Part shown: piece by piece, positions 3,830-62,243 of the stretch
Layout of the letters: each line of letters opens with the position of its first letter
How positions within the stretch are numbered: the stretch's first letter is position 1
Source: Owenia fusiformis
Lineage: Eukaryota > Annelida > Polychaeta > Sabellida > Oweniidae
Direction of reading: 5' to 3'
NCBI GenBank assembly: GCA_903813345.2
Contig: CAIIXF020000002.1
Location: 24,070,455 to 24,134,454 of the forward strand
Length of the DNA stretch: 64,000 nucleotides
Position numbers and translations under genes: made by a program
Notes under the pieces: generated by a model
What the model was told of the DNA's origin: nothing
What the model saw: only the letters and a program-made list of their open reading frames with translations
The model's database searches: none

Positions 3830-6670
3830 GTGATGCAACTTCCAGATCAAAAAATTCCGTCTGCTCTTGTTATTTCGCAAATTTTCTCTCAAAAATTTCA
3901 AAGAACTACCAAATTTTCTTGCATTTCTTTAGAATTTAGAGTCTTAGCTACAATGATATCATGTTAATTCCTTGTCTTTTCCCTTATTTTCTCTGAATTT
4001 TACAAATTAAATGCAACCACCGCTCTAGTGTGAGTAATACTGACACCCTTGTAGCCACTCCGCCTTATACTGTTTATCTCCATAAGCTTGTTTTATTTCA
4101 AGCCTGGATTCTATCACAGTGTGGAACTGACTCTGATCACCTTAGAGGTCTTCTACATTAATACACAATGAAATATTTAGTATTGCACCAAGATTTGTCT
4201 TCTATGTTAGTACACAATAAATTTTTCTTTAGGAATGTCTTCTACAGGCCATGCATGATGATGGTTTAAATTATTGTTATCTCATACTTTTCTTTCAAGT
4301 GGGAAAGAGATGACCAGTGACATATATCTGTTAGTTTGACCAAAAGTAAACATATTGTCAATTATTGTAAATCAGTTAACCCTCTTAGACAGACACTGTT
4401 TCATAGCATGATCACGATTATATCCACATGGGTCTAATGACAAATATAAATAATCAACTTAATTGAGAAATTATGGTCTACAATGGAAGACTTGCGAGCA
4501 AAATAAATGGGTTATAGATGGCAATAGTAGTTCTGGTCAGCCTGGCATACTGTTTCTTTAAATGGAAAACTGACAAAGGTTACTTTATTGCTTAATAAAA
4601 TATGATGTTGTTAACATGTAACAGATCTGCATTATATTGTCAAGTCAGCAAAAATAAAAATGACTAAATTAACAAATATTGACACATTAGAAGAATGTGT
4701 GTTTTTTAGAGGCACGATGATGAATACTTGCAATAGAAGTCCTCCTACAAACAATGCTTTATTTATACCCAAAATCTCCATCTTGTTAATGCCAATTTCA
4801 CACGATTTCTCTCTAGAATTTCAATTTCAATGAACTATACAATTTTCTTGCATTTCTATACAATTAACAATGTCAACTTCCTGTCTGTTTAGTTTATTCC
4901 TTCATAATTCTACTTATTTCAACTCAAATTTTATATTTTGCATTATCTGCTTGGCAAGATATTTTACTGCTAGGAATCTACTATACAGACAGCTATCATC
5001 ACTGGCTTCATCAACAGTTTAGCAGTGTTACCCTGAAACAAAATATCTTGAGTCAAGATTCTTTTTAACTCCCCCCTCCCATTCCTATTGTCTTCCTCAA
5101 ATAAATTGGATGAAATCAAGAAAATATTGAAGGACGATGGTATAATTTTGGGGCTTATTTTCAAAACAGGGCTAATTTTTAGGTAGCTTTAGAAAGTGGG
5201 CCTAGTTTGGAAAAATAGGTCTAGATTTTTTCAAATATGGAAACTGGAAAGTTTCAAGAGTCTTAGCTTGTCAATTTCAAAAATCAAAAAATCTTGTCAA
5301 AAAGTAGTAGGAAAGAGTGATTTGAAAATAAATATATGAAAATTGTAATTCAAACACAGAACATGATACTTCAGGAAATCAAAAAAATCAAAAAGCCTAT
5401 CATTTGCAATAGCAAATCTAAGCAATAATGACTATATTTTAACTGAAGGATATTTTCTTGAGGGAAATGGTTATTTTCCCCATGTTTCTAAAAATGATGT
5501 TTATATTCTAGTTTAAGTTATGGAAATGCTCGTTAAACTGCCAATTGCTATGTTTAATTAGACATTCTGCTACTGACCATTTCGCCACTAGATAAATCAT
5601 CTCTGACCTTTAAACGATCTGAAAATTGCTAGACTAAAACAAAAATTCATGCAATTTTGGCTAAATACCATCCCAATGGTCAGGGTTTTTATTCTATTGA
5701 ATTTTCTGTCTTTGACTAACAGTATTCTACTTAGTACACCCACATATAAATCTTATACTCAAAATTGACGGACATTGAATTTTATATTTTATTTGATCAT
5801 ATATTCTTAATTAGTTAATCTAGATCATGTGACATAACACATTTATTCCTCGACTCCTATTTTCTATTTCTCTGTATTTTACATGAAATTGCAACTTTAA
5901 GTGTACATTCATAAATGGGTCAGTTTTATGTCAGACAAAGTGTAAGAGTCAAGGATTTGCAGGTTTAATTTTTCTTGCTGCTATCAATTTTCTCCATTTC
6001 CACAGTCAGTACTGGAATAATCAAATTAGGCCAAGATAAAAACAAAATTCCTTTCTCCCCTATAACATTCCAACTTTCTAAGGATGTTCCCTTTCCTATC
6101 AAATACCTTGGACTTTTGATTCTTTTACTTTTGGATTATCTTGTATAAATGGGAACATGATTATATTCTGATTACAGAATCCTTTATCATAATGCGAACC
6201 TGAGAATTAATTAATTTGGCCTAATGCAAGGATATCCAAATTACACTTCTAAGTGAACATATGTTTTAAAAGCACCTGTGGTTTCTCTGACTGCTATAAT
6301 ATCCCAAGACAGTGACCTAATTTCATTCTTATTCCATACTTTCTCTCTAAAACATGTAAACGAGTCTGATTCATCATCAGTTCAATAAAATATATATTTT
6401 TGCCCCCATCATGTCATTCCTCCCTAATTTCTAGCTATTTACTTCATTTTCCAGAGGAAAAGAGAGACATGATACTTATAAGTGTGCCTTTTGTGAGAGG
6501 GGTCACTCTTTGAATTATTGATAGCCTCTGAACTCACCAAGCCAATCAGAGTTTTTAAATACTGTCCTGTAAAATGCTGTCATAGTAAGAGTATATAGTA
6601 CACTAACCTGAATTAGTTCAGGGTAAAATTTAGGGACTGGATCCCACCTTTCTCAAATTACTCAAAGTTT
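3830..6670. other. Non-coding stretch with dispersed repeat copies
   Basis: I found no supportable exon. Two or three degenerate copies of a ~160 bp T-rich family lie here in the same orientation (about 3,858-3,975, 4,780-4,940 and a weaker one near 5,835). They share strings such as TTTTCTTGCATTTCT. Other copies are at about 1,478 and 23,622. The remainder is AT-rich intronic or intergenic DNA. Confidence 0.45.
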
Positions 6671-15398: not shown

Positions 15399-15525
15399 CT
15401 AATGCCATCTCTTATTGTATACACATTCCCTTTATCCATGGAGTAGCTGATGTCATGAAGTGACCCAACCATTGCAGCCTCCTTAATCTGGTAGTCTATA
15501 ATGGTGAACATGCCATCCAAGCCTC
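15399..15525 (-). CDS. Candidate internal exon, gene B (propeller-like)
   Basis: On the minus strand an open frame of ~42 codons ends at a consensus donor, TTAG|GTAAGT. It contains LDGMFTIIDYQIKEAAMVGS and HDISYSMDKGNVYTIRDGI. The 5' limit is uncertain: an in-frame TAA sits just before ATTAAG|GAGGCTTGG, and a second possible acceptor (CTACCAG) would start the exon at 15,487. With the longer form it enters in phase 1 and leaves in phase 2. That connects 22.9 kb (ends phase 1) to 12.4 kb (starts phase 2). The pattern of beta strands and DG/KG turns is typical of propeller proteins. The identity is unknown. The acceptor side lies at the edge of a minisatellite. Confidence 0.6.
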
Positions 15526-15760
15526 CTTAATATAATGATTTATTCTACTGAATCTCCTATTTAAGCCTCCTTGATATAATAATGTTTTATTCTTTTAAAT
15601 CCGCCATTTAAGCTTCCTTAATATAATGCTTTATTCTACTGAATCTCCAATTTAAGCCTCCTTAGTATAATAATGTTTTATTCTTTCAAATCCGCCATTT
15701 AAGTTTCCTTAATTAAATGATTTATTCTACTGAATCTGCCTTTGAAGCTTCCTAAGTATA
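15490..15760. repeat. Minisatellite (GCCTCCTTAATATAATG), two alternating unit types
   Basis: About five units of 40-50 bp alternate between a form ending TTTATTCTACTGAATCTCC and one ending GTTTTATTCTTTTAAATCC. The core TTAAGGAGGCT (minus strand) also occurs at the neighbouring exon edge. The array is interrupted at 15,760 by the split-repeat element and resumes, degenerate, after 21,120 (AATGTTTTATG, CCTCCTTATTAT). Confidence 0.75.
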
Positions 15761-15762
15761 AT

Positions 15763-15972
15763 GCAAATTTATATTCGTTTGAGCGAAGCGATTTAAGAAT
15801 ATAAATACTTTCTATATATGTGCAGTGAAGTGAAGAAAAGGCATGAATCATGTTTTGGTGATGTAGCATGCTGTTCGAGTTGAGCAACGATTTTTGTGTG
15901 TTAGGCCTTGTTTAGTGAGTGAGTTTTATGAATAGAGAAGTCATTCTGGGCTTGGTCGCCGAACAGTCAACT
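15763..15972 (+). repeat. Terminal repeat A1 of split-repeat element
   Basis: 210 bp identical by eye to 20,414-20,623. Begins GCAAATTTATATTCG and ends CGAACAGTCAACT. It is preceded by AAT, as is the second copy. It contains GCGAAGCGATTTAAG and a GTGAGTGAG motif. Confidence 0.9.
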
Positions 15973-17839
15973 ACTGTTATATTACGCGTTATCAACAGAG
16001 CGTCACTTCGAGAGGACACAAAGAGCCTGCATTTTCATTACAATCAAAGGTTTTAGGAAATCGCTGAAGGCAATAATCGCTCCGTACAACCACAGAGATA
16101 TGAATATTCAATTATAAAGACGAAAAGGTGATGACATTTCATTTCATAGAAATACATAAAAATTATTTTAAAACCTCGATATAAAGGAAAATACTGGCAT
16201 TTATGTATTGCAATTCTATCACAGGTTCGTTACGTATTATATTATAAAACATTGGTAACGCTATGTCAAATTAACCTTCATTTCGTGTTTTATAATAATG
16301 AATTTCTGATAAATAAGAAGAAATACTGCCATAGATCTTTTCATTTCAGAATTCAGCACGGGGAATTCAACACAACGGCCAACGTATGAACAACTAAACA
16401 ACATTAGTGATCCAAAGAACACAACATCAAACGAATTATGAGTCAACCTGAAACTCTAAGATCATGGAAGAAAACACCTCGGAACAATGTAAACTGACGA
16501 ATAAAGCAGTCATGATTTAAAGATAAGTATATTTGAACCGTGTAAGTTACAAAGTAAGAATAGGTATACCAATTGTATCTGTATAAAAGATCATAATAGA
16601 TACAACCGCAAGAGTAAAAGAGCATATATTAGATGAGAAAAGTAGTATACCAATTTATAAAGTTTATCAAATAAGAAACATTCAGTTTATATAACCAAGA
16701 AGATAAAGGTTTTAGAAAACTAACTAGAAATACATATACATTACTTACTTGATAAAGTAGTTAAGGTAGTTTGCTATTTAGAAAACATTTCATGCTAAGA
16801 CAAAATGGGATTGTTAATTTTACAAACACAGTAAAGATCATTTATAATTTCAAGATAAGAGATAGAAATCACTAGAATAACATGTTCATATCCGGTATTA
16901 CAAATATTTTGTCGAACACATAATAAATAAATCAATAAACAGAGTACAATATTAGGCAGAAATATTTTTTATACATATGCACACGACATAAATTTTCGCA
17001 CACAGTTCAAATTTCCAAATCACCTAAAATAAATAAAGATTATATTATATTTTATTTACTCAGTCATTAAAATAATGGCCATTTAGATTATCAATTAATT
17101 GTATTATAAAACCAGTCACAAGAGAAGAAAATGCTTTACAAAATTTTATTGAGCCATGTAGATTTTTGAAGAGTATGTATTCAGAAAATTAGTCCTGAGA
17201 TAGTTTCATTACTCCCGAGGATAGTGTACTAATACATAGTGCAGATAAACAAAACAGATTGCGACATTAAAGAGATATATCTTTGAAATGAAAGAGTTCC
17301 TCTATATTTTAAGAAATGCGTTGAAGTTCAAGATGGCTTTAAAATACTTTATTTAATTCTTGCTAGTTAATTTATCATTTTGGATATAGTCACAGGGCAA
17401 CTTAGTCAAAGGTTTACCAAACAGCATAATACATATTGCACATAAACGTTATAAATAGACAAAGGGAGATATTATATAATTCAATATGAGATATAAAGAA
17501 CGAAACCTATAGCAGATTTACGAAAGAGAAGTGACATAAATTAGAAATAAATGATCCACTGTAAGCATTGATTTAAATGAGTCACAAAGGGAAATACAGT
17601 TAATTAGCCATAGAATGCAAGCATGGCTAGTTGGCCATGGAAGGCATATACCACAAATGCACCCAATTGGAGTAAATGTGTAAATTTGATCTACTGAACT
17701 AAAAATAAGGCACTTAAGGCAGGTAGAAAAACTGATCAATTAATTCATTAATAAATAAATTAATACATAGCAAATTGTGACATGTTAACTAGCCAATTAT
17801 TGCAAAGACTAATGAGTCACCGAGGGTGAATACGAAACG

Positions 17840-18457
17840 AATAGCATATTAATAGGAAAAAAGCTTGGGCAGATATGCAAATATAGCATATTTGGGCAGA
17901 AAACTACCAAGGGCAGATATTAAAAATCTTGATAAAATTAGATAGATGCTTAAAGAGTCACTCAGGGCAAATTAGAAATAAATAGCAAATACTATTTTAG
18001 TTAATGAAACACCGAGTGCAGGTATGGAAACTATAGCCAATTAGGGTACATATAATTAACATATTCAGGTAGGGCAGACATGATTAGTGAACCAATGAGG
18101 TCAATTTGAAATTATAGCCAATTTAGGCAGATATGATTGTTAAGCCACCGGGGTAGATAAGAAAATTATAGCCAATCAGGGCAGACATGGTCAGTGGGCC
18201 ACGGAAGGCAGATTTGAAGAAAAATATAGCCAATTCAAGACAGATATGATCAGTGAGCCAAAAATATGTATACTGTATATTTATAGCCAATTAGGGCAGA
18301 TATGATTAGTGAGTCACCGAAGGCAGGTATAAAAATAAAGCCAATTAGGGCAGATATGATTAGTGGGTCACATATAAAAATATACCCAATCAGGGCAGAT
18401 ATGAATAATGAGCCGCCGAAGGCAGATACGAAAATTATTAATTACTACATCTATATA

Positions 18458-18491
<34 letters not shown>

Positions 18492-18920
18492 AAAAAAAAA
18501 AAATGGCCAATCAGGGCAGATATGATTAGTGAGTCACATATAAAAAAAAAAAAAAAAGGCAGAAAATTATAGCCAATCAGGGCATATATATATAGCCAAT
18601 CAGGGCAGATATGAATAATGAGCCACTGAAGGCAGATGTGAAAATTATTAATTATTACATATATATATAATCAGGGCAGATATGATTAATGAGTCACATA
18701 TAAAAATATGGCCAATCAGGGCAGATATGATTAGTGAGTCACATATAAAAAATATAGTCAATCAAGGCAGATATGAATAATGAGCCACCGAAGGCAGATA
18801 TGAAAATTATAGCCAATCAGGGCAGATATATATAGCCAATCAAGGCAGATATGAATAATGAGCCACCGAAGGCAGATGAAAATTATAGCCAATCTGGGCA
18901 GATATGATTAGATAGCCACT
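17840..18920 (+). repeat. ~55 bp satellite inside the split-repeat element
   Basis: About 15-20 degenerate units with the cores AGCCAATCAGGGCAGATATG and GAGCCACCGAAGGCAG. Units are ragged at the left, most regular between 18,240 and 18,900, and interrupted by A-runs at about 18,461-18,500 and 18,545. Fainter relatives of the motif extend back to about 17,600. The array makes up about a quarter of the element's interior. Confidence 0.85.
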
Positions 18921-20307
18921 CAAGACAGATATGACAATGGTAGGTATAAATCACCTTTATTTAAGTCAAACTTTTGCAGCATATACAAAAAATATTGCTA
19001 TTACAGTTCAAAAAAATAAAAAAATAAATAAAAAATGGAGCAATTATTTGCAGATCATGTAAAAGTAATAAACAAATGAGTACATATCAAATTATGATTT
19101 AAATTGAAAACAAATACAGTATGGGTAAAACAGACACATAAATACAAACTTAGCAGCAAAATAATGAAAGGTTAAAGGTTATTAAAGGGCAAGACTATAG
19201 TCTATAAAATTCAACGGTAAAGACAACCATTTCAGATTTTCTTATAACGAAAATTTGACTAAATAAGTACAACTCTCAAAGGAAAGGAACAAAAAGCTGT
19301 AAATAAATCCAGCAAGAACTATACTTCATGATCAAAATTCGACAACGTACTGTACCTTCAATAATTAACAAAGATCGTTATAATTTGATAAGTTTTACAA
19401 CATTGCTTAACAAAGATATACAGGGACGAAAAAAAAAAAAAAAATATTGTGCCAAATGTTTGAATAAATATGTACTATGAAAATCAAAATCAGGTTTTAA
19501 CTAGAAATGATAGTCATTTGTGGCGTATTCATACATAGGTATTGTTTTATTTAGTATTTTAACTATTTTCTGTTGATATTTGTGTTCCAAAGGTCATGAA
19601 CAAAAACAACATGGAAGTCTGTTAATTTTTATACGATACCTGTTTTCGCAGACACACTTTGCATTCGTAAAGAAAATTTTAGTCTACAATTATATATATT
19701 TAACATACGTTAATTAATGTTGGTATATTTCACATGTTATGCAGAGTAGAAAAAATTTATATATTTCAAGTTAATGTAAGACACAAAATGATGAAGTGAA
19801 AAATTAAAACGTTTTCGTCATTATTTCAGAACAAAAATACTGCTGCTACATGCATTTTCAGGATTTTTGGAACTGTGGACGTTTTAAAACGATTCGGGGT
19901 CGATGGAAGAATCAACAGTCGATACGAGAACCGACCAAAGACGATTTCTAGCGCTTATTATCATGGAATCGTCACCACGTCAGTCACATATGGACGGTAA
20001 GGCTCAACACCTGGCAGGACACTTCCAATGCTTTCTGCAGTCGCACAGATGTAATCTCCCACAGCGCATATATTTGGGATTCTCGACTTTGTATGTCATA
20101 TGGACAGTCGACAGATTAAAGGCAAAGATATACTCACTTTAATATGAGTAATTATATAATGACAACCACAATGATAGTCGTTTAATATACTAAACGATCG
20201 CATGGAGGTTTGATGGCAAAAACATATGGATATTTTGGCATTTAGAACAAAATATGACGGACAGTTATATGATTATAAGTTTCTACATTCCCGTTCTCTA
20301 GTGTTCT

Positions 20308-20413
20308 GTAGCGACCACAAGCCAAAGCTTGATCTAAATTAAACGAGTGTTGTGTTGTGTTGTGTTGTGTTGTGTAACATGCCGCGTACGTAACGTAACG
20401 TACAGAATAGAAT
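20308..20413 (+). repeat. Repeat B1 of split-repeat element
   Basis: 106 bp identical by eye to 21,014-21,119. Starts GTAGCGACCACAAGCC, contains a (TGTTG) pentanucleotide run, and ends in a CGTAACG-rich tail, CGTACAGAATAGAAT. It abuts A2 directly. A 20 bp partial copy of its start precedes B2 at 20,993-21,013. Confidence 0.9.
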
Positions 20414-21119
20414 GCAAATTTATATTCGTTTGAGCGAAGCGATTTAAGAATATAAATACTTTCTATATATGTGCAGTGAAGTGAAGAAAAGGCATGAATC
20501 ATGTTTTGGTGATGTAGCATGCTGTTCGAGTTGAGCAACGATTTTTGTGTGTTAGGCCTTGTTTAGTGAGTGAGTTTTATGAATAGAGAAGTCATTCTGG
20601 GCTTGGTCGCCGAACAGTCAACTCCAAAAAATTTTAAGCAAAATTTTTTAAAAAGCTATTTCTGCATTCAAACAGATTTTACCTATGATTGGGTCTGATG
20701 GGTTGAGAGGTGGGGTTATACCTTTCCATAGGGCATCGACTTCAGTCGAATAGCATCTTTGGTTTTAATGGTGATCAACCACCTTGATATCAATCAGGCA
20801 ACAATTAAACGTTGCATACAAACTGTTTTACTAATTGTACAATATACCCGACACAGTTTCTGCCATATGTACACGTACAATAGGATTTACAAATGAGCAG
20901 GCCATGCAAACAGTCTTACAAAACGATATCAATCAAAACAATTGTAAACATCTTGTCACATGTACACATATACTAGTATTTACAAATAAAGGGTAGCGAC
21001 CACAAGCAAAAGTGTAGCGACCACAAGCCAAAGCTTGATCTAAATTAAACGAGTGTTGTGTTGTGTTGTGTTGTGTTGTGTAACATGCCGCGTACGTAAC
21101 GTAACGTACAGAATAGAAT

Positions 21120-28079: not shown

Positions 28080-29240
28080 TCACAGGATATGATGGTCTTG
28101 TGTTTCTAAATTAACTGTTTGACCAATCATTAGTGAAGTTCTCTTAAATGCATCATCTACATCTGCCCCATTATCAACCAACATCCTCACAAACTCAGTT
28201 CTATTTTTCTCAACAGCATACATTAACGCAGTCTTCCCCTTTTGGTCAGCAGCATTAATGTCAGCACCATCATCAATCAACATTTTCATAAACTCAGTTG
28301 TATTTCTTTCAAGCGCAAACATTAATGTAGTTTTTCCATATTTGTTAGTTTTATTCACCTCAGCCCCACTGTCAAGAAGCATCTCAACAAAATCAATTGT
28401 GCTTTTCTCAATTGCATACATCAATGCAGTCTCCCCAAATTTGTCAGAAGCATTTATATCTGCACCATTGTCAATTAATATCTTTACGAAGTCAGCTCTG
28501 CTTTTCTGTAGTGCATACTTCAATGCAGAACCATATTTGTCCGAGGCATTAACATCCGCTCCATTGTCGATCAACATCTTCATAAATACAGATGACTGTC
28601 TCCCGAGTGAATATATCAATACAGTCGTCCCATCCTTGTTGCCGGCATTAACATCCGCTCCACTATCAATCAAAATCTTCGCAAACTCTGGTGTATTTCT
28701 CCACAACGCAAGCATTAATGGCGTATTTCCATCTCTATCAGCAGCATTTACATCAGCTCCATTATCAATTAACATCTTCACAAACTCAATTGTATTTTTC
28801 CATAACGCAAGCATCAATGCTGTATTTCCATCATCGTCTGTGGCATTTATATCAGCACCATTGTTGATCAACATTGGTACAAAGTCAGCTCTATTTTTCT
28901 CAACAGCATATATTAATGCGGTCATCCCATCTTTCTCAGCCACATTTACATTTGCCCCATTATCAATTAGTGTCTTTATAATGTCTATTGTATTTGCATT
29001 CATTAATGCCGTCATTCCATATTTGTCAACAGCATTCACATCTGCGCCAGAATCAATCAGCAGCTGTAGTATTCCACAGTCTACATCCACATTCTGCAAA
29101 CTAGAACTTTCACATGCCCACAGCAGTAATTCTGAATGTGGAAAGTAAGAGTGTGAACTTTGTAAAATCTCTCCCAATTTTTCTCGGTTTCCAGCTAATA
29201 TTGCCTTTTCAGCATCTTGTCTAGAGTAAGTCAGACCCAT
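28080..29240 (-). CDS. Ankyrin-repeat protein, apparently single exon
   Basis: An uninterrupted frame encodes 386 residues from the first ATG (29,240; MGLTYSRQDAEKAILAG). The open frame extends seven more codons upstream, where TTGCTCAG could instead be an acceptor. After a ~45-residue helical cap, about nine or ten 33-residue ankyrin repeats follow, each with the LLIDNGADVNAxDxxGxTAL signature. One repeat (DKYGSALKYAL) has lost one residue. The last repeat runs into a short tail ending HHIL. Ankyrin stacks bind partner proteins; no other domain, signal peptide or membrane segment is visible, so a soluble intracellular protein is likely. The repeats are very similar to each other, pointing to recent tandem duplication. 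The 5' side abuts a palindromic MITE, and the gene lies in the last intron of gene D, same strand. Confidence 0.85.
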   Translation of the reverse strand: MGLTYSRQDAEKAILAGNREKLGEILQSSHSYFPHSELLLWACESSSLQNVDVDCGILQLLIDSGADVNAVDKYGMTALMNANTIDIIKTLIDNGANVNVAEKDGMTALIYAVEKNRADFVPMLINNGADINATDDDGNTALMLALWKNTIEFVKMLIDNGADVNAADRDGNTPLMLALWRNTPEFAKILIDSGADVNAGNKDGTTVLIYSLGRQSSVFMKMLIDNGADVNASDKYGSALKYALQKSRADFVKILIDNGADINASDKFGETALMYAIEKSTIDFVEMLLDSGAEVNKTNKYGKTTLMFALERNTTEFMKMLIDDGADINAADQKGKTALMYAVEKNRTEFVRMLVDNGADVDDAFKRTSLMIGQTVNLETQDHHIL

Positions 29241-29293
29241 ATTGTTCAGCTGAGCAATCAATGTAGCCAGTTATATATATGAATCTCCTACTA

Positions 29294-48296: not shown

Positions 48297-49218
48297 CTAC
48301 TTTTCTCCAGTATGGATAAGATTGTGACTGACTAAGTTACATCTATTTGCAAATGCTTTATGACAAATGTGACATTCACATTTCTTTTCTCTCGTATGGA
48401 TGAAAGTGTGACTTAGTAAATTAGATTTCCTTGCAAATCTTTTGAAACAGATAACACATATTTTCTCCAGTGTGGATGAGATTATGACTTAATAAATCAG
48501 ATTTTGTTGCAAACATCTTGGAACAAATGTAACATTTAAATTTCTTTTCTCCAGTATATATGAGATTGTGCCTATTTAAATGAGATTTCTGTGCAAATTT
48601 TTTTAAACAAATGTCACATTTAAACTGTTTTTCTCCAGTATGAATGCGATTGTGCTTTAGTAAGCTGGACTTGAGTGCAAATGCTTTAAAACAAATGTCA
48701 CATTTAAACTGCTTTTCTCCAGTGTGGATGAAAAGGTGACCTTCTAAGTTAGATTTCCATTCAAATGTTTTTGAACAAATGTGACATTCAAATTTCTTCT
48801 CTCCAGTATGAATGAGATTGTGACATACTAAGTGAGAATTATGTGCAAATACTTTATGACAAATTTCACATTTAAATTTCTTATCTCTAGTATGGATGAG
48901 AGTGTGACTTAGTAAATGAGATTTCTTTGGAAAGGTTTTTGAACAAATGTCACATTTAAATTTCTTTTCACCAGTAAGGATGAGATTGTGGCTTACTAAG
49001 TGAAATTTCTGTGCAAATGTTTTAGAACAAATGTCACATTTAAATTTCTTTTCACCAGTATGGATGAGATTGTGAATTGCTATTTCTGACTTCCTTGCAA
49101 ATGTTTTAGAACAAATGTCACATTCAAATTTCTTCTCTCCAGTATGAATGAGATTGTGATATACTAAGTAAGAGTTATGTGCAAATACTTTATGACAAAT
49201 TTCACATTTAAATTTCTT
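48297..49218 (-). pseudogene. Decayed extension of the zinc-finger array
   Basis: Immediately after the stop codon of the 22-finger ORF the same frame continues for nine more C2H2 fingers (e.g. KKFKCEICHKVFAHNSYL, KQFKCDICLKKFAQKSHL). A small deletion in a linker (about 48,465) then shifts the frame. In the new frame two further fingers follow (CVICFKRFARKSNLLSH, CECHICHKAFANRCNLVSH) up to TAG at 48,297-48,299. Beyond that a twelfth is barely recognisable. The stop that separates this block is in a linker: GGAGAA elsewhere, GGTTAA here. Confidence 0.85.
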
Positions 49219-51120
49219 TTAACCAGTATGGATGAGTTTGTGGTTTACTAAATGAGATTTCCTTGTAAATGTTTTTGAACAAATGTGACATTTAAACTGC
49301 TTTTCTCCAGTGTGGATAAGATTATGACTTACTAAATGAGATTTCTTAGCAAATGTTTTGGAGCAAATGTCACATTTAAATTTCTTTTCTCCAGTATGGA
49401 TGAGATTGTGACTTGCTACCTCAGATTTGCTTGCAAATGTTTTGAAACAAACGTCACATTTAAACTGGCTTTCTTCAGTGTGATTGTGATTGTGCTTTAC
49501 TAAGCTAGACTTCCAGGCAAAAGTTTTATAACATATGTCACATTTAAACTTCCTTTCCCTCGTATGGATGATATTGTGTTTTACTAAGTAAGATTTCAAA
49601 GCAAATGTTTTTGAACAAATGTCACATTTAAACTGCTTTTTTCCAGTATGAATGAGATTGTGTGTTACCAATGTAGCTTTCTGTGAAAATTCTTTAAAAC
49701 AAATGTCACATTTAAACTGCTTTTCTCCAGTATGAATGAGATTGTGAGATACTAAATGAGATTTATGTACAAATGTTTTAGAACAAATGTCACATTTAAA
49801 TTTCTTTTCACCAGTATGGATGAGATTGTGAATTCCTATATCTGACTTCCTTGCAAATGCTTTAGAACAAATGTTGCATTTAAACTGCTTAATTCCAGTA
49901 TGAATGAGATTGTGAGATACTAAATAAGATTTCTGTGCAAATGTTTTAGAACAAATATCACATTTAAATTTCTTTTCTCCAGTATGGATGAGATTGTGTA
50001 ACCCTAAGTTGAATTTCCGTGCAAATGTTTTAGAACAAATGTCACATTTAAATTGTTTTTCTCCAGTATGAATGAGATTGTGACTTACTAAGGCAGATTT
50101 CCATGTAAACGTTTTAGAGCAAGTGTCACATTTAAACTTCCTTTCTCTTGTATGGACAATATTGTGTATTACTAAGTTAGATTTCAAAGCAAATGTTTTT
50201 GAACAAACGTCACATTTAAACTGTTTTTCTCCAGTATGGATGAGGTTGTGATGTACTAAGTTGCCCTTACGTGCAAAGGTTTTTGAGCAAATGTCACATT
50301 TAAACTGCTTTTCTCCAGTATGAATGATATTGTGTGTTACCAATGTATCTTTCCTTGCAAATTCTTTAAAACAAATGTCACATTTAAATTGCTTTTTTCC
50401 AGTATGGATGAGATTGTGACTTACTAAGTAAGATTTTCTTGCAAATGTTTTACTACAAATGTCACATTTAAACTGCTTTTCTCCAGTATGGATAAGATTG
50501 TGGCTTACTAAGTGAAATTTTCTTGCAAATGTTTTACTACAAATGTCACATTTAAATTGCTTTTCTCCAGTATGGATGAGATTGTGACTTACTAAGTGAA
50601 ATTTTCTTGCAAATGTTTTACTACAAATGTCACATTTAAATTGCTTTTCTCCAATATGGATGAGATTGTGACTTACTAAGTAAGATTTTCTTGCAAATGT
50701 TTTACTACAAATGTCACATTTAAACTGCTTTTCTCCAGTATGGATAAGATTGTGGCTTACTAAGTGAAATTTTCTTGCAAATGTTTTACTACAAATGTCA
50801 CATTTAAATTGCTTTTCTCCAGTATGGATAAGATTGTGGCTTACTAATTGAGATTTTCTTGCAAATGTTTTAGAACAAATGTCACATTTAAACTGCTTTT
50901 CTCCAGTATGGATAAGATTGTGACTTGCTAAGTGAGATTTTCTTGCAAATGTTTTAGAACAAATGTCACATTTAAATTGCTTTTCTCCAGTATGTATGAG
51001 ATTGTGCCTCTTTAAACAAGATTTCTGTGCAAATGTTTTAGAACAAATGTCACATTTAAATTGCTTTACTGCAGTTTGGATGAGATTGTGATTAGACATT
51101 ATACATGTATCTGTACTCAT
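49219..51120 (-). CDS. C2H2 zinc-finger protein, 22 tandem fingers
   Basis: 633 residues from ATG at 51,120. After 18 residues that look like the end of a decayed finger come 22 consecutive 28-residue fingers (FKCDIC-x12-H-x3-H with HTGEKQ linkers) and nothing else. There is no KRAB, ZAD, BTB, SET or other effector domain. The zinc ligands are intact in all 22. The role would be nuclear DNA or RNA binding. Helix position 1 is almost always Lys and -1 mostly Arg, so base-contact diversity is low; position 3 varies most (H, Q, Y, N, T, A, D, E). Fingers 4-8 are near-identical, a recent internal amplification. Upstream an in-frame TGA closes the frame, so any N-terminal domain would need a spliced exon I cannot see. 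The C-terminus is cut by a stop inside a linker. Confidence 0.8.
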   Translation of the reverse strand: MSTDTCIMSNHNLIQTAVKQFKCDICSKTFAQKSCLKRHNLIHTGEKQFKCDICSKTFARKSHLASHNLIHTGEKQFKCDICSKTFARKSQLVSHNLIHTGEKQFKCDICSKTFARKFHLVSHNLIHTGEKQFKCDICSKTFARKSYLVSHNLIHIGEKQFKCDICSKTFARKFHLVSHNLIHTGEKQFKCDICSKTFARKFHLVSHNLIHTGEKQFKCDICSKTFARKSYLVSHNLIHTGKKQFKCDICFKEFARKDTLVTHNIIHTGEKQFKCDICSKTFARKGNLVHHNLIHTGEKQFKCDVCSKTFALKSNLVIHNIVHTRERKFKCDTCSKTFTWKSALVSHNLIHTGEKQFKCDICSKTFARKFNLGLHNLIHTGEKKFKCDICSKTFAQKSYLVSHNLIHTGIKQFKCNICSKAFARKSDIGIHNLIHTGEKKFKCDICSKTFVHKSHLVSHNLIHTGEKQFKCDICFKEFSQKATLVTHNLIHTGKKQFKCDICSKTFALKSYLVKHNIIHTRERKFKCDICYKTFAWKSSLVKHNHNHTEESQFKCDVCFKTFASKSEVASHNLIHTGEKKFKCDICSKTFAKKSHLVSHNLIHTGEKQFKCHICSKTFTRKSHLVNHKLIHTG

Positions 51121-51249
51121 GCCGATTCATTTAAAATCTCATTGAACAGGAACAATATTTTTTCAGTATATTTGGGGTAATTCAGTCTGGTATATGATGC
51201 TTGTAATTTAGGGTTGTAGGTATCTGTGACCTGAATATCTAGGTTTATA

Positions 51250-57854: not shown

Positions 57855-60800
57855 TTATTGGGTCTGGGGTTTATATACACATTTTAAAAGACCCTTTACA
57901 CATTTATCGAACTTAAAAGCTTCTTCTTGTCCCCACAATGTAAAAATGTCCTCACCTAAGGCCCAACATGTTTTAATTTGCACACTGGCTGATAGAAGAC
58001 CCGACGATAGTGCTGGATTACATTTTTGAATAACATTTTTATAAAAAGTATTTCTATCATTACCAAAGAAAGGGCATACAAAAAGTCTATGTTGGATGGT
58101 GTCTTTTACATTTTTATCACATAACGTACATATTCCATTTCCCTGTCCCCATTTTTCGTATTCTGTTTTTAAGCCAAAACACCCTGATCTAGCTTTGAAC
58201 TTTAATTTTTGCCCATAGAAGTCAAAATCTGTGGTCAGGTAGTTTTTTAAGAAGGGATGGGGATTTAGACATCGATACAGTGAGAGTGAAGACTTTTCAT
58301 TCAATGCAGATTTAAAATTATTAAGCCTTTCTTGATCTGATATTTTGATAAGGGCCTGATACCAGTCAATATCATCTCTGTAGATAACATCATCCAGTCC
58401 ATATTTTGTTAGGATGGATTTTATGTTTGAAAAGTAAGGGAATGCTTTGCTTTCATCATTAGCACAGAAGCCATCATACATAGAATTAAATATCTTTTTG
58501 TGTAATGACCCTTCTTTGATATTACATTTTAGATATATAAAGTAATCTATTTGCCTTTTTTCAATGGCATCAACAAGAGGTCTCCAGCCTAAATCACCTA
58601 AAAGTGCTTCTCTGGCTGGGCAACACCTAATTTGGAGAATTGATCTCCCAATATTATATTGCATTGATTTCATTTTATCCGTGTTAGTTTTGTTTAACGT
58701 GAATATAGGACAGCCATGAAGAATGGCAGGGACAAACATTGAATTGTACATTTTCTCCCCAAATTTGAGACGCATGACATTACAGTGTTTTGTCAAAGTG
58801 GAGACTATCATACCTTGAATTCGTTTAGATTTTTCAGCAAGGAAGTCAATGTGGCCAGAGTCTTTTAGAGACCGATCAAAATATATCCCTAGATACTTAT
58901 AACTTTTAACCTCAAATAATTCATGGCTGCCTAAGATCCATTTTTTATTTTTGTCAAGTCTTTTCCCAATGACCATAACCTTTGATTTTTTAGGGCTAAA
59001 ATTGAACCCCCATTTAATAGAAAAGATGTCAGCAATTTTCAACATTCTGTTCATTGTAGATTCATTTTCGGCAAGTAAAACAACATCATCGGCGAACATA
59101 AGAACTGGGACCTTTTCATTTTCAAAAGGTAACCCTATATCTTCATTGTTGAACATTTCAACAAGGTCGCTCATAACAAGGGAAAACAGAGTCGGGGAGA
59201 GGCAGCAACCCTGTTTTAGGCTATAGACAGGGTTGCACTCTTCCCACTCTGTTGAAATTGTTCCAAAAATCACTTTGCTTTTAACTCCCATATATAACTT
59301 CCTCAAAATGCGCCAGACTTTGCCTTGAATCCCCTTTTCCCATAATCGTAAAAATAAAAGGTCCCTGTTGACCACGTCGAAGGCTTTAGAGATGTCCAAA
59401 AAAGATAAATAGGTCTTAAGGTTGTTGTTTTTCCTCATGCTACTGATACCTTTAAGGGCAAAGATATGATTTTCTAATCTCAAACCTGATCTAAAGGCGC
59501 CTTGCAAGTCACCCAAAACGTTATTAACTTCGAAAAACTTCAAGATCTTAGATTCCATAATAGAGGTGAAAAGCTTGTAAATGTTAGAGTTTATTGTTAT
59601 GCCTCTATAGTTGTCAAGTATTTCCTTATCTGAATTCTTGTGAATGGGAAATAAAAGACCTTCTTTCCATTCTTTTGGCATTTGTTCTCTAATCTTCACT
59701 TGATAAAATATTTCAGATATTGATTTAATTATAATAGGCCCCCCTTGCTTCAGAAATTCATTTGGAATTTGATCTGTTCCACATGCTTTACCATTACTTA
59801 ACCCTTTGATACATTCGGAAACTTCACCTTCATCAAATGTAACATCAAATAAAGCATTGTCTGAAAATGCAGATGACATATGAAGCTCTCTAAGTTGCTG
59901 AGACAAGTCTGTTTTTACTGAACGATCATTTACATTGTTGGGACCAACATTTTTCCAGTATTTAGCAATTGACTGAGATACTTTCCGAGGGTCAGTTATT
60001 ATACATTTTGGGTCATCTGGGTCTTTTATTTGTATTGGGTGTCCTGCTTTTGCATTAAACATTTTTAATGTTTTCCAAAAAGATTTTGAATTAGATTTCT
60101 TTGAGGCATTCTTTGTGATAGTCTTAATATGGTTTTGAATGTGTACTTGTTTAATCTTATCACGAACTTGCTCTTTTCTTTGAATATATAAATCCCACAT
60201 TTCTTGCAGCACATTGGGGTCGCATGTTTTGGCGCGTTTCCAATACCTAAAGAAACGACATGCTTCCCTTCTATTTTTGATTAATTGTTTGATTTCTTCA
60301 TTCCAGAATGATACATGGTTGGGGGAGATTACCTTAGTTCCCACAGACTCATAGGCTGCCTCTTTGACTTTACCCTTCCAAACTGCCCATGCTTCCTCAA
60401 TATTAGAGTATAATGAAATATCCCAGGAATTAAATTGTTTTGTTATAAGTTGCTGGAACTTTGTCCAGTCTGTATTTTCTGAGATTTTCCAACTTGGTGT
60501 TTTAATTACTTCATTTGACATTTTATTTTTAGATTTGGATTTAGAATCTGACCCGCAACAAGAGCCTTCAACAACAAGAAAAGCGTGGCTGCTGCCAATA
60601 GACACATCGTGATTTTCATGAATAACCATTTTATCATAAATACTCATAAATCTGTCATTGACCAAAATATAATCAAGTGTGGATGACTGGTTGTTGCGGG
60701 CCCATGTTACCTCACCTTCACATTCTTCAGTTAAATTAAGTATAGTACAATTGGTTGCCTCACTGAGGACTTCTATGAATTTACCATTGTGACTGCTTTG

Positions 60801-61331
60801 ACCACTATTGAATTCTTTTATGCGTCCATTAAAGTCACCCATAAGGAGGGTACATTCGTTGCTATTATCAAATTGAGAAATGTCTTTGATTAGTTCCTCA
60901 GTAAGGGCTTCTGTAAGAGCAGGATTCTTCCCATCATTTGGAAAGTATGCAACTCCAACATTAAGAATTACATTGACTATCTTTACCTTTAACCAATATC
61001 TTTCAAATTCATCATTAAGTGAATCTAAGTGGTTTTCTTTTAAAATAGTAACTTTATCTCTTTTTATGAAAAAACCAACACCACCACCAGATCTATTGAC
61101 TCTGTTCTTACCAAACCATTCATATTCCTTATTACTGACAGTAGGGGTATTCGAGTCTTTGAAAAATGTTTCACACACTCCTACAATGTCAAACTGTTTC
61201 ATTGACAGAAGATTATCAAGTTCGTGTTGTTTTGCTAATCCTAAGTATTCTACATTGTTGAATGCGATACTTAAAGGAAAATTGGCATTGTTCTTGCGTT
61301 TGTGTGCACCCCTTCGTGAACGTTTATGCAA
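57855..61331 (-). CDS. LINE ORF2: endonuclease and reverse transcriptase
   Basis: Up to 1,158 codons with no stop. Endonuclease of the APE type at about residues 20-250: VGVCETF, GDFNGR (~164), TLDYILVN (~219) and SHAFLVVEG (~242). Reverse transcriptase at about 540-830: LSFLDISKAFDVV (~642), LKQGCCLSPTLF and the catalytic FADDVVLL (~745), with Phe for the usual Tyr. The C-terminus has a Cys/His cluster, CTLCDKNVKDTIQHRLFVCP (~1,065), typical of this LINE type. The first codon listed is TTG; the first ATG is ~44 codons in, after the endonuclease has begun, and the frame is open back to the TAG that ends ORF1. The ORF is full length at its 3' end and catalytic motifs are intact. Confidence 0.93.
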   Translation of the reverse strand: MHKRSRRGAHKRKNNANFPLSIAFNNVEYLGLAKQHELDNLLSMKQFDIVGVCETFFKDSNTPTVSNKEYEWFGKNRVNRSGGGVGFFIKRDKVTILKENHLDSLNDEFERYWLKVKIVNVILNVGVAYFPNDGKNPALTEALTEELIKDISQFDNSNECTLLMGDFNGRIKEFNSGQSSHNGKFIEVLSEATNCTILNLTEECEGEVTWARNNQSSTLDYILVNDRFMSIYDKMVIHENHDVSIGSSHAFLVVEGSCCGSDSKSKSKNKMSNEVIKTPSWKISENTDWTKFQQLITKQFNSWDISLYSNIEEAWAVWKGKVKEAAYESVGTKVISPNHVSFWNEEIKQLIKNRREACRFFRYWKRAKTCDPNVLQEMWDLYIQRKEQVRDKIKQVHIQNHIKTITKNASKKSNSKSFWKTLKMFNAKAGHPIQIKDPDDPKCIITDPRKVSQSIAKYWKNVGPNNVNDRSVKTDLSQQLRELHMSSAFSDNALFDVTFDEGEVSECIKGLSNGKACGTDQIPNEFLKQGGPIIIKSISEIFYQVKIREQMPKEWKEGLLFPIHKNSDKEILDNYRGITINSNIYKLFTSIMESKILKFFEVNNVLGDLQGAFRSGLRLENHIFALKGISSMRKNNNLKTYLSFLDISKAFDVVNRDLLFLRLWEKGIQGKVWRILRKLYMGVKSKVIFGTISTEWEECNPVYSLKQGCCLSPTLFSLVMSDLVEMFNNEDIGLPFENEKVPVLMFADDVVLLAENESTMNRMLKIADIFSIKWGFNFSPKKSKVMVIGKRLDKNKKWILGSHELFEVKSYKYLGIYFDRSLKDSGHIDFLAEKSKRIQGMIVSTLTKHCNVMRLKFGEKMYNSMFVPAILHGCPIFTLNKTNTDKMKSMQYNIGRSILQIRCCPAREALLGDLGWRPLVDAIEKRQIDYFIYLKCNIKEGSLHKKIFNSMYDGFCANDESKAFPYFSNIKSILTKYGLDDVIYRDDIDWYQALIKISDQERLNNFKSALNEKSSLSLYRCLNPHPFLKNYLTTDFDFYGQKLKFKARSGCFGLKTEYEKWGQGNGICTLCDKNVKDTIQHRLFVCPFFGNDRNTFYKNVIQKCNPALSSGLLSASVQIKTCWALGEDIFTLWGQEEAFKFDKCVKGLLKCVYKPQTQ

Positions 61332-61406
61332 TTTACGAGGCTTTGTGTGTGATCTAGGGACATTATCTTTGCATTGTGGGGATGGGGCGATAACTTCACC
61401 AAGAAT

Positions 61407-62025
61407 CTAGAACCGGTTGAAATCTTGGTGCCCTTGGTCCACCATCCTGTTTGCAGGACATCTTGAGACTTTGTGTCCAAGCTGATTGCACCCACGGCAA
61501 CGTACGGTGGCAGGGTGCCAACATGAGCTAGTGAGGTGGCTGGCCTCCCCACATTTGATGCATCTTAAGGAGTGTCCTTGTTGAGGTTTAGATTGTTCGT
61601 GAGTTGTCGCATCTGTTTGATTATTGGGAGATTGGCGAGCATTATTTCTATGTTTCTTGTTCACTGTTGTCCAGTCATTGGTTCCATGATTGGGGTCATC
61701 ATTATTGTTATTATTATCTTGGTTCTGTTGATTCTGTTTGTTGAAGGCATTCTTGTTACGGTTATAGTACGGTTTGGTAATGTCCTTGCCTTTCGTTTTG
61801 AGCTTCATATTGATAGCCAGTCGGTTTGTTCCTGGTTTCGATAAATGGAGGCCATCACCATGTAAAAACCCATCATTAATGGAATTGTCTTGGAGCTTAA
61901 ACGAGAGGTCATTGTTTATGAAAGTGACACTTGCATCTTCATCAGAGCAGATGCCTTGTAGTGTGGCATTGACAGTGTCAACTGTAAATAAGGTATATCT
62001 GGCTAGAATATTTAAAAGGGAACAC
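61407..62025 (-). CDS. LINE ORF1, 3' part: esterase-like tail and zinc knuckles
   Basis: The frame is open from the truncation point to TAG at 61,407-61,409. The upstream part contains DLSFKLQDNSINDGF, then HGDGLHLSKPGTNRLA. That resembles the last block of SGNH/GDSL hydrolase folds, where the D-x-x-H pair supplies two catalytic residues; such esterase domains are known in ORF1 of several LINE clades. An Asn/Gln-rich linker follows, then two CX2CX4HX4C zinc knuckles (CIKCGEASHLTSSC and CRGCNQLGHKVSRC). The product would bind element RNA in a ribonucleoprotein. The N-terminus is missing. The esterase assignment rests on one motif and is less sure than the knuckles. Confidence 0.75.
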
Positions 62026-62243
62026 CAGGCCCGAAGCCAGGGTGGGGGGGGGGTTCGATGGGTTCAAGTGACCCCCCCCCCCCGCCCCGGCCACAAAATC
62101 TTTCAAAATAATGCAGTTTTTCACCATTCTGAGCACTTTTTGAGTGATTTTGGCAATTTTTGAACCAAAATTGTCCCAAGTGAAGACCCCCCCTGGAATT
62201 TTTCTAAAAGTGACCCCCTTGGCAAATCCTGGTTAAGGGCCTG
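62026..62243. mobile_element. hAT-like MITE, 218 bp
   Basis: Left end CAGGCCCGAAGCCAGG; right end, inverted, CAGGCCCTTAACCAGG. Long G and C runs lie just inside. The interior (TTTTTCACCATTCTGAGCAC) is shared with 62,545-62,755, 37.7 kb and 12.85 kb. It directly abuts the truncated LINE end. Confidence 0.75.

What the first reader, a model, noticed from the sequence alone, without database searches (positions are those of the whole stretch)
15763..21119. A coding-free element with split direct repeats (A1-B1-A2-B2)
Two different repeats, 210 bp and 106 bp, are arranged A1 - 4.3 kb - B1A2 - 390 bp - B2. Both pairs are identical by eye, so the insertion is recent. This order is the signature of PAT/Ngaro-type tyrosine-recombinase retrotransposons, yet no RT, RNase H or recombinase frame is present. 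Non-autonomous members of this group are poorly described, and a young one implies an active autonomous partner supplying enzymes in trans.
Basis: partly seen in the sequence, partly recalled or inferred. Interest (0 to 1): 0.8.

Follow-up and report, generated by a model that had tools for sequence, protein, structure and literature searches.

The report
Gene-free hitchhiking jumping element
This 5.4-kb stretch of DNA is a recently inserted jumping element that carries no genes of its own but keeps end signals of gene-bearing relatives in the same genome, so it most likely moves by borrowing their enzymes; comparing the two also exposes a folded RNA signal that they share.

Summary
A1 and A2, and B1 and B2, are 100% identical in the order A1 - 4.33 kb (I) - B1A2 - 389 bp (C) - B2, boundaries 15762-21118, with no RT, RNase H or recombinase frame. 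The two flanks joined match a neighbouring repeat unit gap-free (117/131): no target duplication.

Two more copies elsewhere have the same order and gene-free interior. The genome also holds coding relatives (Gag, RT-RNase H with a weak Dam-like match, Cre-like recombinase) with the same layout: 'echinoderm-form Pat1-like' rather than Ngaro. One coding locus, L003, shares the window element's ends (blocks at 87-96%) and an exact 12-base array motif that, of 63 loci, only L003 and the gene-free copies have. Best reading: a non-autonomous, trans-mobilised Pat1-like element.

Further: (1) C holds a ~110-nt RNA, kept in gene-free members and part of the coding ones, with 9 of 16 pairs changed on both sides (0 of 500 shuffles) and no credible Rfam match. 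(2) 'Half elements' exist: A-C-B (at least 12 in the window family, 4 in a coding family) and A-I-B (L003, L025). A-C-B is to this family what SIRE is to VIPER in trypanosomes; whether halves form by simple recombination or recombinase-resolved circles is open.

The parts
15762..15972 (+). A1, left split direct repeat; first base of the element is T15762
15767..15806 (.). 10-bp perfect inverted repeat ATTTATATTC ... GAATATAAAT (15767-15776 / 15797-15806) at the left terminus; same place in L003, L024, L025, L028, and as ATTTATGTTC ... GAACATAAAT in L022/L023; not found in L027
   Evidence: (3 of 1000 single-base shuffles reach a 10-bp stem)
15973..20306 (+). I, gene-free interior; 3 full copies found in the genome (window, L001, L002) plus fragments
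18032..18934 (+). Irregular tandem array (TRF periods 23-78 bp) with motif GCCACCGAAGGC; coding elements L022-L025, L027, L028 carry an array of other sequence between RT and YR
20290..20308 (+). Box CCCGTTCTCTAGTGTTCTG at the I/B1 border; same word in L003, similar box just before B1 in L022-L028
20307..20412 (+). B1
20413..20623 (+). A2
20624..21012 (+). C, segment between A2 and B2
20691..20804 (+). Conserved, covarying structured RNA in C
21013..21118 (+). B2, right end of the element (...ATAGAA)
15512..15761 (.). Target: a local 91-bp minisatellite; its neighbouring unit serves as the empty site

Best explanation
A non-autonomous, protein-less retrotransposon of the Pat1-like (PAT, order DIRS) group, copied and integrated by proteins of coding Pat1-like relatives. 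Inferred steps: an RNA of the element is recognised through cis signals it shares with coding members, reverse transcribed, closed to a circle using the internal B1A2 junction as guide, and inserted by the relatives' Cre-like tyrosine recombinase at a BA junction without target duplication. Shown: architecture, identical repeat pairs, three copies at separate places, zero-bp target duplication at the window site, coding relatives with the same layout, shared cis sequences. Inferred: packaging, copying and recombination in trans; L003's lineage as the partner.
For: Identical repeat pairs in order. Empty-site match 117/131, no gap at the junction. Over 23 independent left ends the element begins with T in 22 (G in L025, whose relatives L026/L028 have G at the internal junction too) and the target has A two bases outside in 20 of 23; the base after ATAGAA varies (18 right ends: T 10, A 5, C 2, G 1) (counted by me). 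Coding loci in the same genome: of 15 fetched with 7.2-7.7 kb, 9 show A1/A2 pairs, 11 show B1/B2 pairs, 8 show both, at 94-100% identity (lowest 93.9%, L033). L003: three frames (268, 759, 344 aa stop to stop), RVT_1, RVT_3 (RNase H type) and Phage_integrase over cut-off, nearest solved structure Cre (E 1.3e-5). L003 shares A 4-73 (96%), A 179-209 (87%), B 1-35 (94%), B 85-107 (96%) and exact GCCACCGAAGGC, found in L001, L002 and L003 and none of the other 60 loci then held; in the window 6 matches at up to 1 mismatch, all inside the array, 0.04 expected. Shared box before B1 and terminal inverted repeat, shared C RNA.
Against: No expression, protein or transposition data. L003 lacks A2-C-B2 and its YR is single copy (next best 67% identical), so a working partner is not demonstrated. 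The interior has no detectable coding remnant, so descent by internal deletion is not shown; the interior could have been acquired. The Dam-like and CCHC matches are below Pfam cut-offs. No phylogeny of the coding relatives was run.
Confidence: 0.88

Rival explanations
1. Dead remnant: a formerly coding Pat1-like element that lost its genes by decay, with no trans-mobilisation.
For: The coding relatives have similar ends; no enzyme frames remain.
Against: No residue of RT, Gag or YR detectable although repeat pairs are 100% identical; three copies share the same gene-free interior (window and L001 97-99% outside the array, L002 about 90-91%), so the gene-free form itself was copied.
Confidence: 0.07
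2. Tandem satellite or tandem duplication rather than a mobile element.
For: There are repeats, and an internal minisatellite.
Against: Separate copies with different flanks, constant ends and order, precise empty site.
Confidence: 0.01
3. On the A-C-B copies: they are only solo-type scars left where A1 and A2 recombined in place, as solo LTRs form, and do not move.
For: Both complementary products exist: A-C-B and A-I-B; L015 (A-C-B) matches L003 (A-I-B) at 99.5% in A and 100% in B. A coding family has 7 full copies and 4 A-C-B. In the tree of A2-C-B2 blocks the full copies do not form one group.
Against: Window family has 12 A-C-B to 3 full copies against 4 to 7 in the coding family (Fisher p 0.043, small numbers). 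L009, L012, L013 differ by only 0.6-0.9% from each other but 1.9-2.3% from the nearest full copy; a lost common parent would also explain this.
Confidence: 0.55
4. On the A-C-B copies: the recombinase resolves a replicated circle at its two BA junctions into an I circle and a C circle, each of which can insert, giving A-I-B and A-C-B.
For: A circle of A1-I-B1A2-C-B2 necessarily has two identical BA junctions; constant ends of A-C-B in three lineages; cluster of young A-C-B copies.
Against: The same sequences result from in-place recombination; no circles were observed.
Confidence: 0.3

Closest known systems
Pat1-like elements, echinoderm form (SpPat1; PMC4157794, passages read)
   Same: [quoted passage not shown] coding relatives here have Gag, RT-RNase H, a weak Dam-like tail and forward YR
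   Different: The window element has no genes; no sequence comparison with SpPat1 itself (not held)
SIRE of Trypanosoma cruzi, short partner of VIPER (PMC6681497 and PMC12278014, passages read)
   Same: SIRE corresponds to the region spanning A2 and B2, as the A-C-B copies here do; its origin and mobility are stated as open
   Different: VIPER is another superfamily in a very distant host; here the full-length gene-free form also exists, and the complementary A-I-B form is seen
Ngaro elements (PMC9210276 and PMC4157794, passages read)
   Same: Split direct repeats in the same order
   Different: Ngaro lacks the methyltransferase-like domain; the coding relatives here show a weak Dam match
LARD / Dasheng-type gene-free LTR retrotransposons (recalled; Dasheng seen only as a reference title)
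   Same: Large gene-free element with complete terminal signals, moved in trans
   Different: Split direct repeats and YR-type insertion instead of LTRs and integrase

Membership tests
PAT / Pat1-like retrotransposon | Split direct repeats A1-B1-A2-B2, internal pair downstream of YR | tested here: met
   Window order: (it has no YR). Coding relatives:
PAT / Pat1-like retrotransposon | RT, RNase H and tyrosine recombinase genes | tested here: not met
   Absent from the window element; present in coding relatives. Hence filed as a non-autonomous derivative, not as a coding member
PAT / Pat1-like retrotransposon | Methyltransferase (MT/Dam-like) domain after RNase H | tested here: inconclusive
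   Four coding RT proteins scanned: PF05869 E 1.7e-5 to 2.7e-4, all below the curated cut-off
PAT / Pat1-like retrotransposon | Gag with zinc finger | tested here: inconclusive
   P0003 of L003: zf-CCHC E 0.0085, below cut-off; the motif is visible by eye
PAT / Pat1-like retrotransposon | Insertion without target duplication (stated for VIPER/TATE in PMC12278014; for PAT recalled) | tested here: met
   Window site; ends compared over 23 left and 18 right junctions
PAT / Pat1-like retrotransposon | RT/YR phylogenetic position with PAT | not tested
   Reference protein sequences were not held
Ngaro | No MT domain | tested here: inconclusive
   Weak Dam-like match in all four coding RT proteins scanned argues against Ngaro
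SIRE-type short derivative | Consists of the A2..B2 region only | tested here: met
   Met by the A-C-B copies, not by the window copy, which is full length
Tandem satellite | Head-to-tail arrays of the A..B unit | tested here: not met
   No such array in the copies read

The most novel reading that the evidence does not exclude
Pat1-like elements of this genome carry an undescribed folded RNA signal in the A2-B2 segment that is the key cis element for replication, and their Cre-like recombinase splits replicated circles at the two BA junctions into an I circle and a C circle, so that a gene-free full element and a mobile A-C-B half element (an animal counterpart of SIRE) both spread as parasites of coding elements.
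Probability: 0.25. Interest if true: 0.78.

Novelty: new variant of a known kind. Interest (0 to 1): 0.62.

Why it matters
The signals that split-direct-repeat retrotransposons need in cis are not defined in the passages I read. A gene-free element that was still copied is a natural deletion map: what it shares with coding relatives of unrelated interior (terminal inverted repeat, box before B1, B end, C RNA, array motif) is the candidate list. The paired half elements also bear on the question left open for SIRE/VIPER: whether the A2-B2 short form is a remnant or a mobile element.

Tried and rejected
Hairpin arrays: several coding elements carry tandem arrays whose units look like small hairpins. 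Tested four ways. Loop-anchored stem pairing against shuffled partners in 12 arrays: all 1000 shuffles exceeded in L027 and in the window array (71 of 120 against a mean of 61.6), not in the other ten; the window result rests on A/T pairs around AATTA words, with stems of 1-3 bp. Folding of 11 repeat units against unit shuffles: combined p 0.045. Hairpins against dinucleotide shuffles in 14 regions: distinct stems in clear excess in L030, L031 and L033, total hairpins in L027; the window array is not enriched. Pooled distinct L027/L037/L038 units: 137 of 185 pairs against 110 by shuffling, 0 of 5000. So a hairpin role for the window array is rejected here and kept only as an aside for those families.

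Rfam: three matches at E 1.3-2.5, all far below gathering scores. Allelic empty site: none found. RNA-model matches in L020 (E 0.0033) and window 6157-6263 minus (E 0.0058) were inspected and lack the conserved words; dropped. The word TTTTATTGGTG in L029, L032, L039 and L045 lacks the other words and was dropped. Pseudoknot AGGT/ACCT in the C RNA: considered, nearly invariant, not counted. Host identity: one paper search on a guessed species gave nothing usable. Literature: (listings); one search's phrase search returned unrelated papers; no listing showed gene-free PAT elements or a structured RNA in DIRS-order elements, in this open-access library only. PMC3266345 (passages): the term non-autonomous does not occur in it.

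Rows dropped before counts: in the tree L006, L018, L019, L060, L061 and the C47 copy were left out (truncated, with inserts, partial, or not fetched); L004/L005 share flanks and count as one insertion. L014 (no B), L061 (about 91%) and L060 (A only) are outside the count of 12. The RNA model was run over the window and 41 of the 63 loci then held.
Full report
WHAT IS THERE. The window holds two perfect direct-repeat pairs in the order A1 - I (4,334 bp) - B1A2 - C (389 bp) - B2. Comparing junctions of many insertions fixes the element at 15762-21118: it starts T-GCAAATTTATATTC and ends ATAGAA. The longest frame is 106 aa; four of the six frames printed were submitted to Pfam without a match; the Gag, RT and YR proteins of L003 find nothing credible in it (best E 0.10 in the window).

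IT IS MOBILE. Two other places, L001 and L002, both on contig C6 and 8 Mb apart, carry the same order and the same interior; in L002 A1 and B1 are interrupted. Outside the array the interior of L001 is 99% (5' part) and 97% (3' part) identical, that of L002 about 90-91%; L001 lacks about 220 bp of I. Fragments of I occur at two more places (L020 and C102). The window's flanks find no match in L001-L020. The insertion sits in a 91-bp minisatellite, and the two flanks joined match the neighbouring unit over 131 bases (117 identical) with no gap at the junction: no base gained or lost. That is what tyrosine-recombinase insertion gives and what integrases or target-primed reverse transcription normally do not (established knowledge). 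Over the 23 independent left ends printed (L004/L005 counted once), the first base is T in 22 and G in L025, whose relatives L026 and L028 have G at the internal junction too; the target has A two bases outside the element in 20 of 23 (not in L008, L019, L023). Repeat pairs without a difference over about 320 bp mean a young insertion (my bound: under about 0.9% divergence at 95%).

WHO SUPPLIES THE ENZYMES. The recombinase family PF00589 gives 94 matches in the genome (144 of 154 candidates scored), one of them inside L003, a locus found through A and B. L003 has three frames without a stop: Gag-like (268 aa with a CCHC-type motif), RT-RNase H with a Dam-like tail (759 aa) and YR (344 aa). 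Its YR is closest to Cre among solved structures (E 1.3e-5). With that YR as query 117 matches were scored of 241 candidates. Fifteen loci with long flanks were fetched (L022-L036): A1/A2 pairs show in 9, B1/B2 pairs in 11 and both in 8, at 93.9-100% identity. These are coding elements with the window's architecture and the internal pair downstream of a forward YR, which the nematode survey PMC4157794 (passages read) calls echinoderm-form Pat1-like. The Dam-like match (E 1.7e-5 to 2.7e-4 in four proteins, below the curated cut-off) speaks for PAT and against Ngaro, but weakly.

THE CLOSEST PARTNER. L003 matches the window element at A 4-73 (96%), A 179-209 (87%), B 1-35 (94%) and B 85-107 (96%), and hardly elsewhere. 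The array inside the window's I carries GCCACCGAAGGC; among the 63 loci then held the exact 12-mer is in L001, L002 and L003 only, and in the window six matches with at most one mismatch all lie in the array (0.04 expected). Just before B1 the window has CCCGTTCTCTAGTGTTCTG; L003 has the same word and L022-L028 a similar box. The left 50 bases of A contain a 10-bp inverted repeat at the same place in the window, L003, L024, L025 and L028, and as a doubly changed version in L022/L023 (ATTTATGTTC/GAACATAAAT); it was not found in L027. Against this reading: L003's YR is a single copy, L003 lacks A2-C-B2, and nothing shows that it is expressed.

A NEW RNA FEATURE. C shares about 100 bases at 89-92% with C of the L003 lineage (L015-L017) although its surroundings do not align, and the same words (CGATAGGT, ATACCTTT, GGTTTTAATGGTG, ATCAATCG) recur in C of coding elements L022, L023, L024, L026 and L028. 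On an alignment of 12 rows with a three-helix structure that I proposed after inspecting these sequences, 92.7% of cells pair and 9 of 16 pairs have changes on both sides; no shuffle of 500 reaches either, nor the covariation score, but the number of further pair types is reached by 41 of 500; sliding the partners by 1-3 columns leaves 1-3 such pairs. RNAalifold finds helices 1 and 2 by itself. Helix 3 never changes on both sides and is untested. The structure was derived from the same sequences, which favours it, and related rows are not independent. The single window sequence folds better than shuffles (z -3.8). Rfam has no match near a gathering score. A model of it, run over the window and 41 of 63 loci, finds the training rows by construction and, outside the training set, L001, L002, L023, L026, L056, L059 and L061; L027 has the words but does not score, and in the second coding subgroup (L029-L036) the only match is L029 at E 0.98. 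Likely role (inference): a cis signal for reverse transcription, circle formation or packaging; a self-cleaving RNA is possible but untested.

HALF ELEMENTS. Twelve window-family insertions (L004 with its duplicate L005, L006-L013, L018, L019 and a copy on C47 read only) consist of A-C-B without I and B1; A and C are 93-100% identical to the window's, B 82-90%. Some are not clean: L006 has lost most of C, and L012, L018 and L019 carry inserts. The L003 lineage shows both halves: L003 is A-I-B and L015 is A-C-B, with A 99.5% (187 bp) and B 100% (90 bp) identical. L025 is another A-I-B. The coding family of L023 has 7 copies with both A repeats at full-length spacing (two of them fetched), 4 clean A-C-B copies (L064-L067) and one broken copy. 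The excess of A-C-B in the window family (12 to 3 against 4 to 7) is only nominally significant (p 0.043; 0.022 if the broken copy counts as full). In a tree of 13 A2-C-B2 rows the full copies do not group together, and L009, L012 and L013 are 0.6-0.9% apart but 1.9-2.3% from the nearest full copy. In T. cruzi, SIRE is the A2-B2 region of VIPER, and its origin and mobility are stated as open (PMC6681497; PMC12278014; passages read). The half elements here are the same kind of object. They can come from A1 x A2 or B1 x B2 recombination in place, or from recombinase acting on the two BA junctions of a circle; sequence alone cannot decide.

VERDICT. It is a large gene-free Pat1-like element, a new variant of a known kind; the C RNA and the paired half elements are what make it interesting.

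Noticed in passing
L027 3965-4520, L037 548-1109, L038 599-1067 (reverse-complement orientation for L027 and L038): Tandem units of small hairpins (GCACA-loop-TGTGC and GCACC-loop-GGTGC) between RT and YR; stems covary between two unit types.
   Followed up: partly
L030 4540-4850 (reverse complement) and L031 4470-4760: Several 5-7 bp hairpins with different stems and a shared GACGATGAT-like loop in the RT-YR spacer, in excess of shuffles.
   Followed up: partly
L032, L033, L034, L035, L036: In these coding loci a repeat array lies downstream of YR (between B1 and B2 in L032, L033, L035) instead of between RT and YR.
   Followed up: no
L033 C segment, about 6287-6600 in reading orientation: GTCAGTTTC ... 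GAAACTGAC could close another structured RNA in C (seen output).
   Followed up: no
L018 962-5802: A-C-B copy interrupted inside C by about 4.8 kb with 162-bp terminal direct repeats (98%) and a 5-bp overlap of C at both ends: looks like a nested LTR-type insertion.
   Followed up: no
L004 and L005: Two A-C-B copies 62 kb apart with the same flanks: a segmental duplication, not two insertions.
   Followed up: partly
L048 2511-2929, L049 2534-2985 (reading orientation): More distant YR loci (26-28% identical) with a 100% direct-repeat pair (116 and 93 bp) after YR and no tandem array reported: probably another YR group.
   Followed up: no
window 57855-62063 minus: Long frame of 1183 aa that reads like endonuclease plus reverse transcriptase, preceded by a 218-aa frame with zinc-knuckle motifs: looks like a non-LTR retrotransposon (by eye).
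   Followed up: no
window 28080-29270 minus; 48421-51126 minus: Uninterrupted 396-aa ankyrin-repeat frame, and two long C2H2 zinc-finger array frames (by eye).
   Followed up: no
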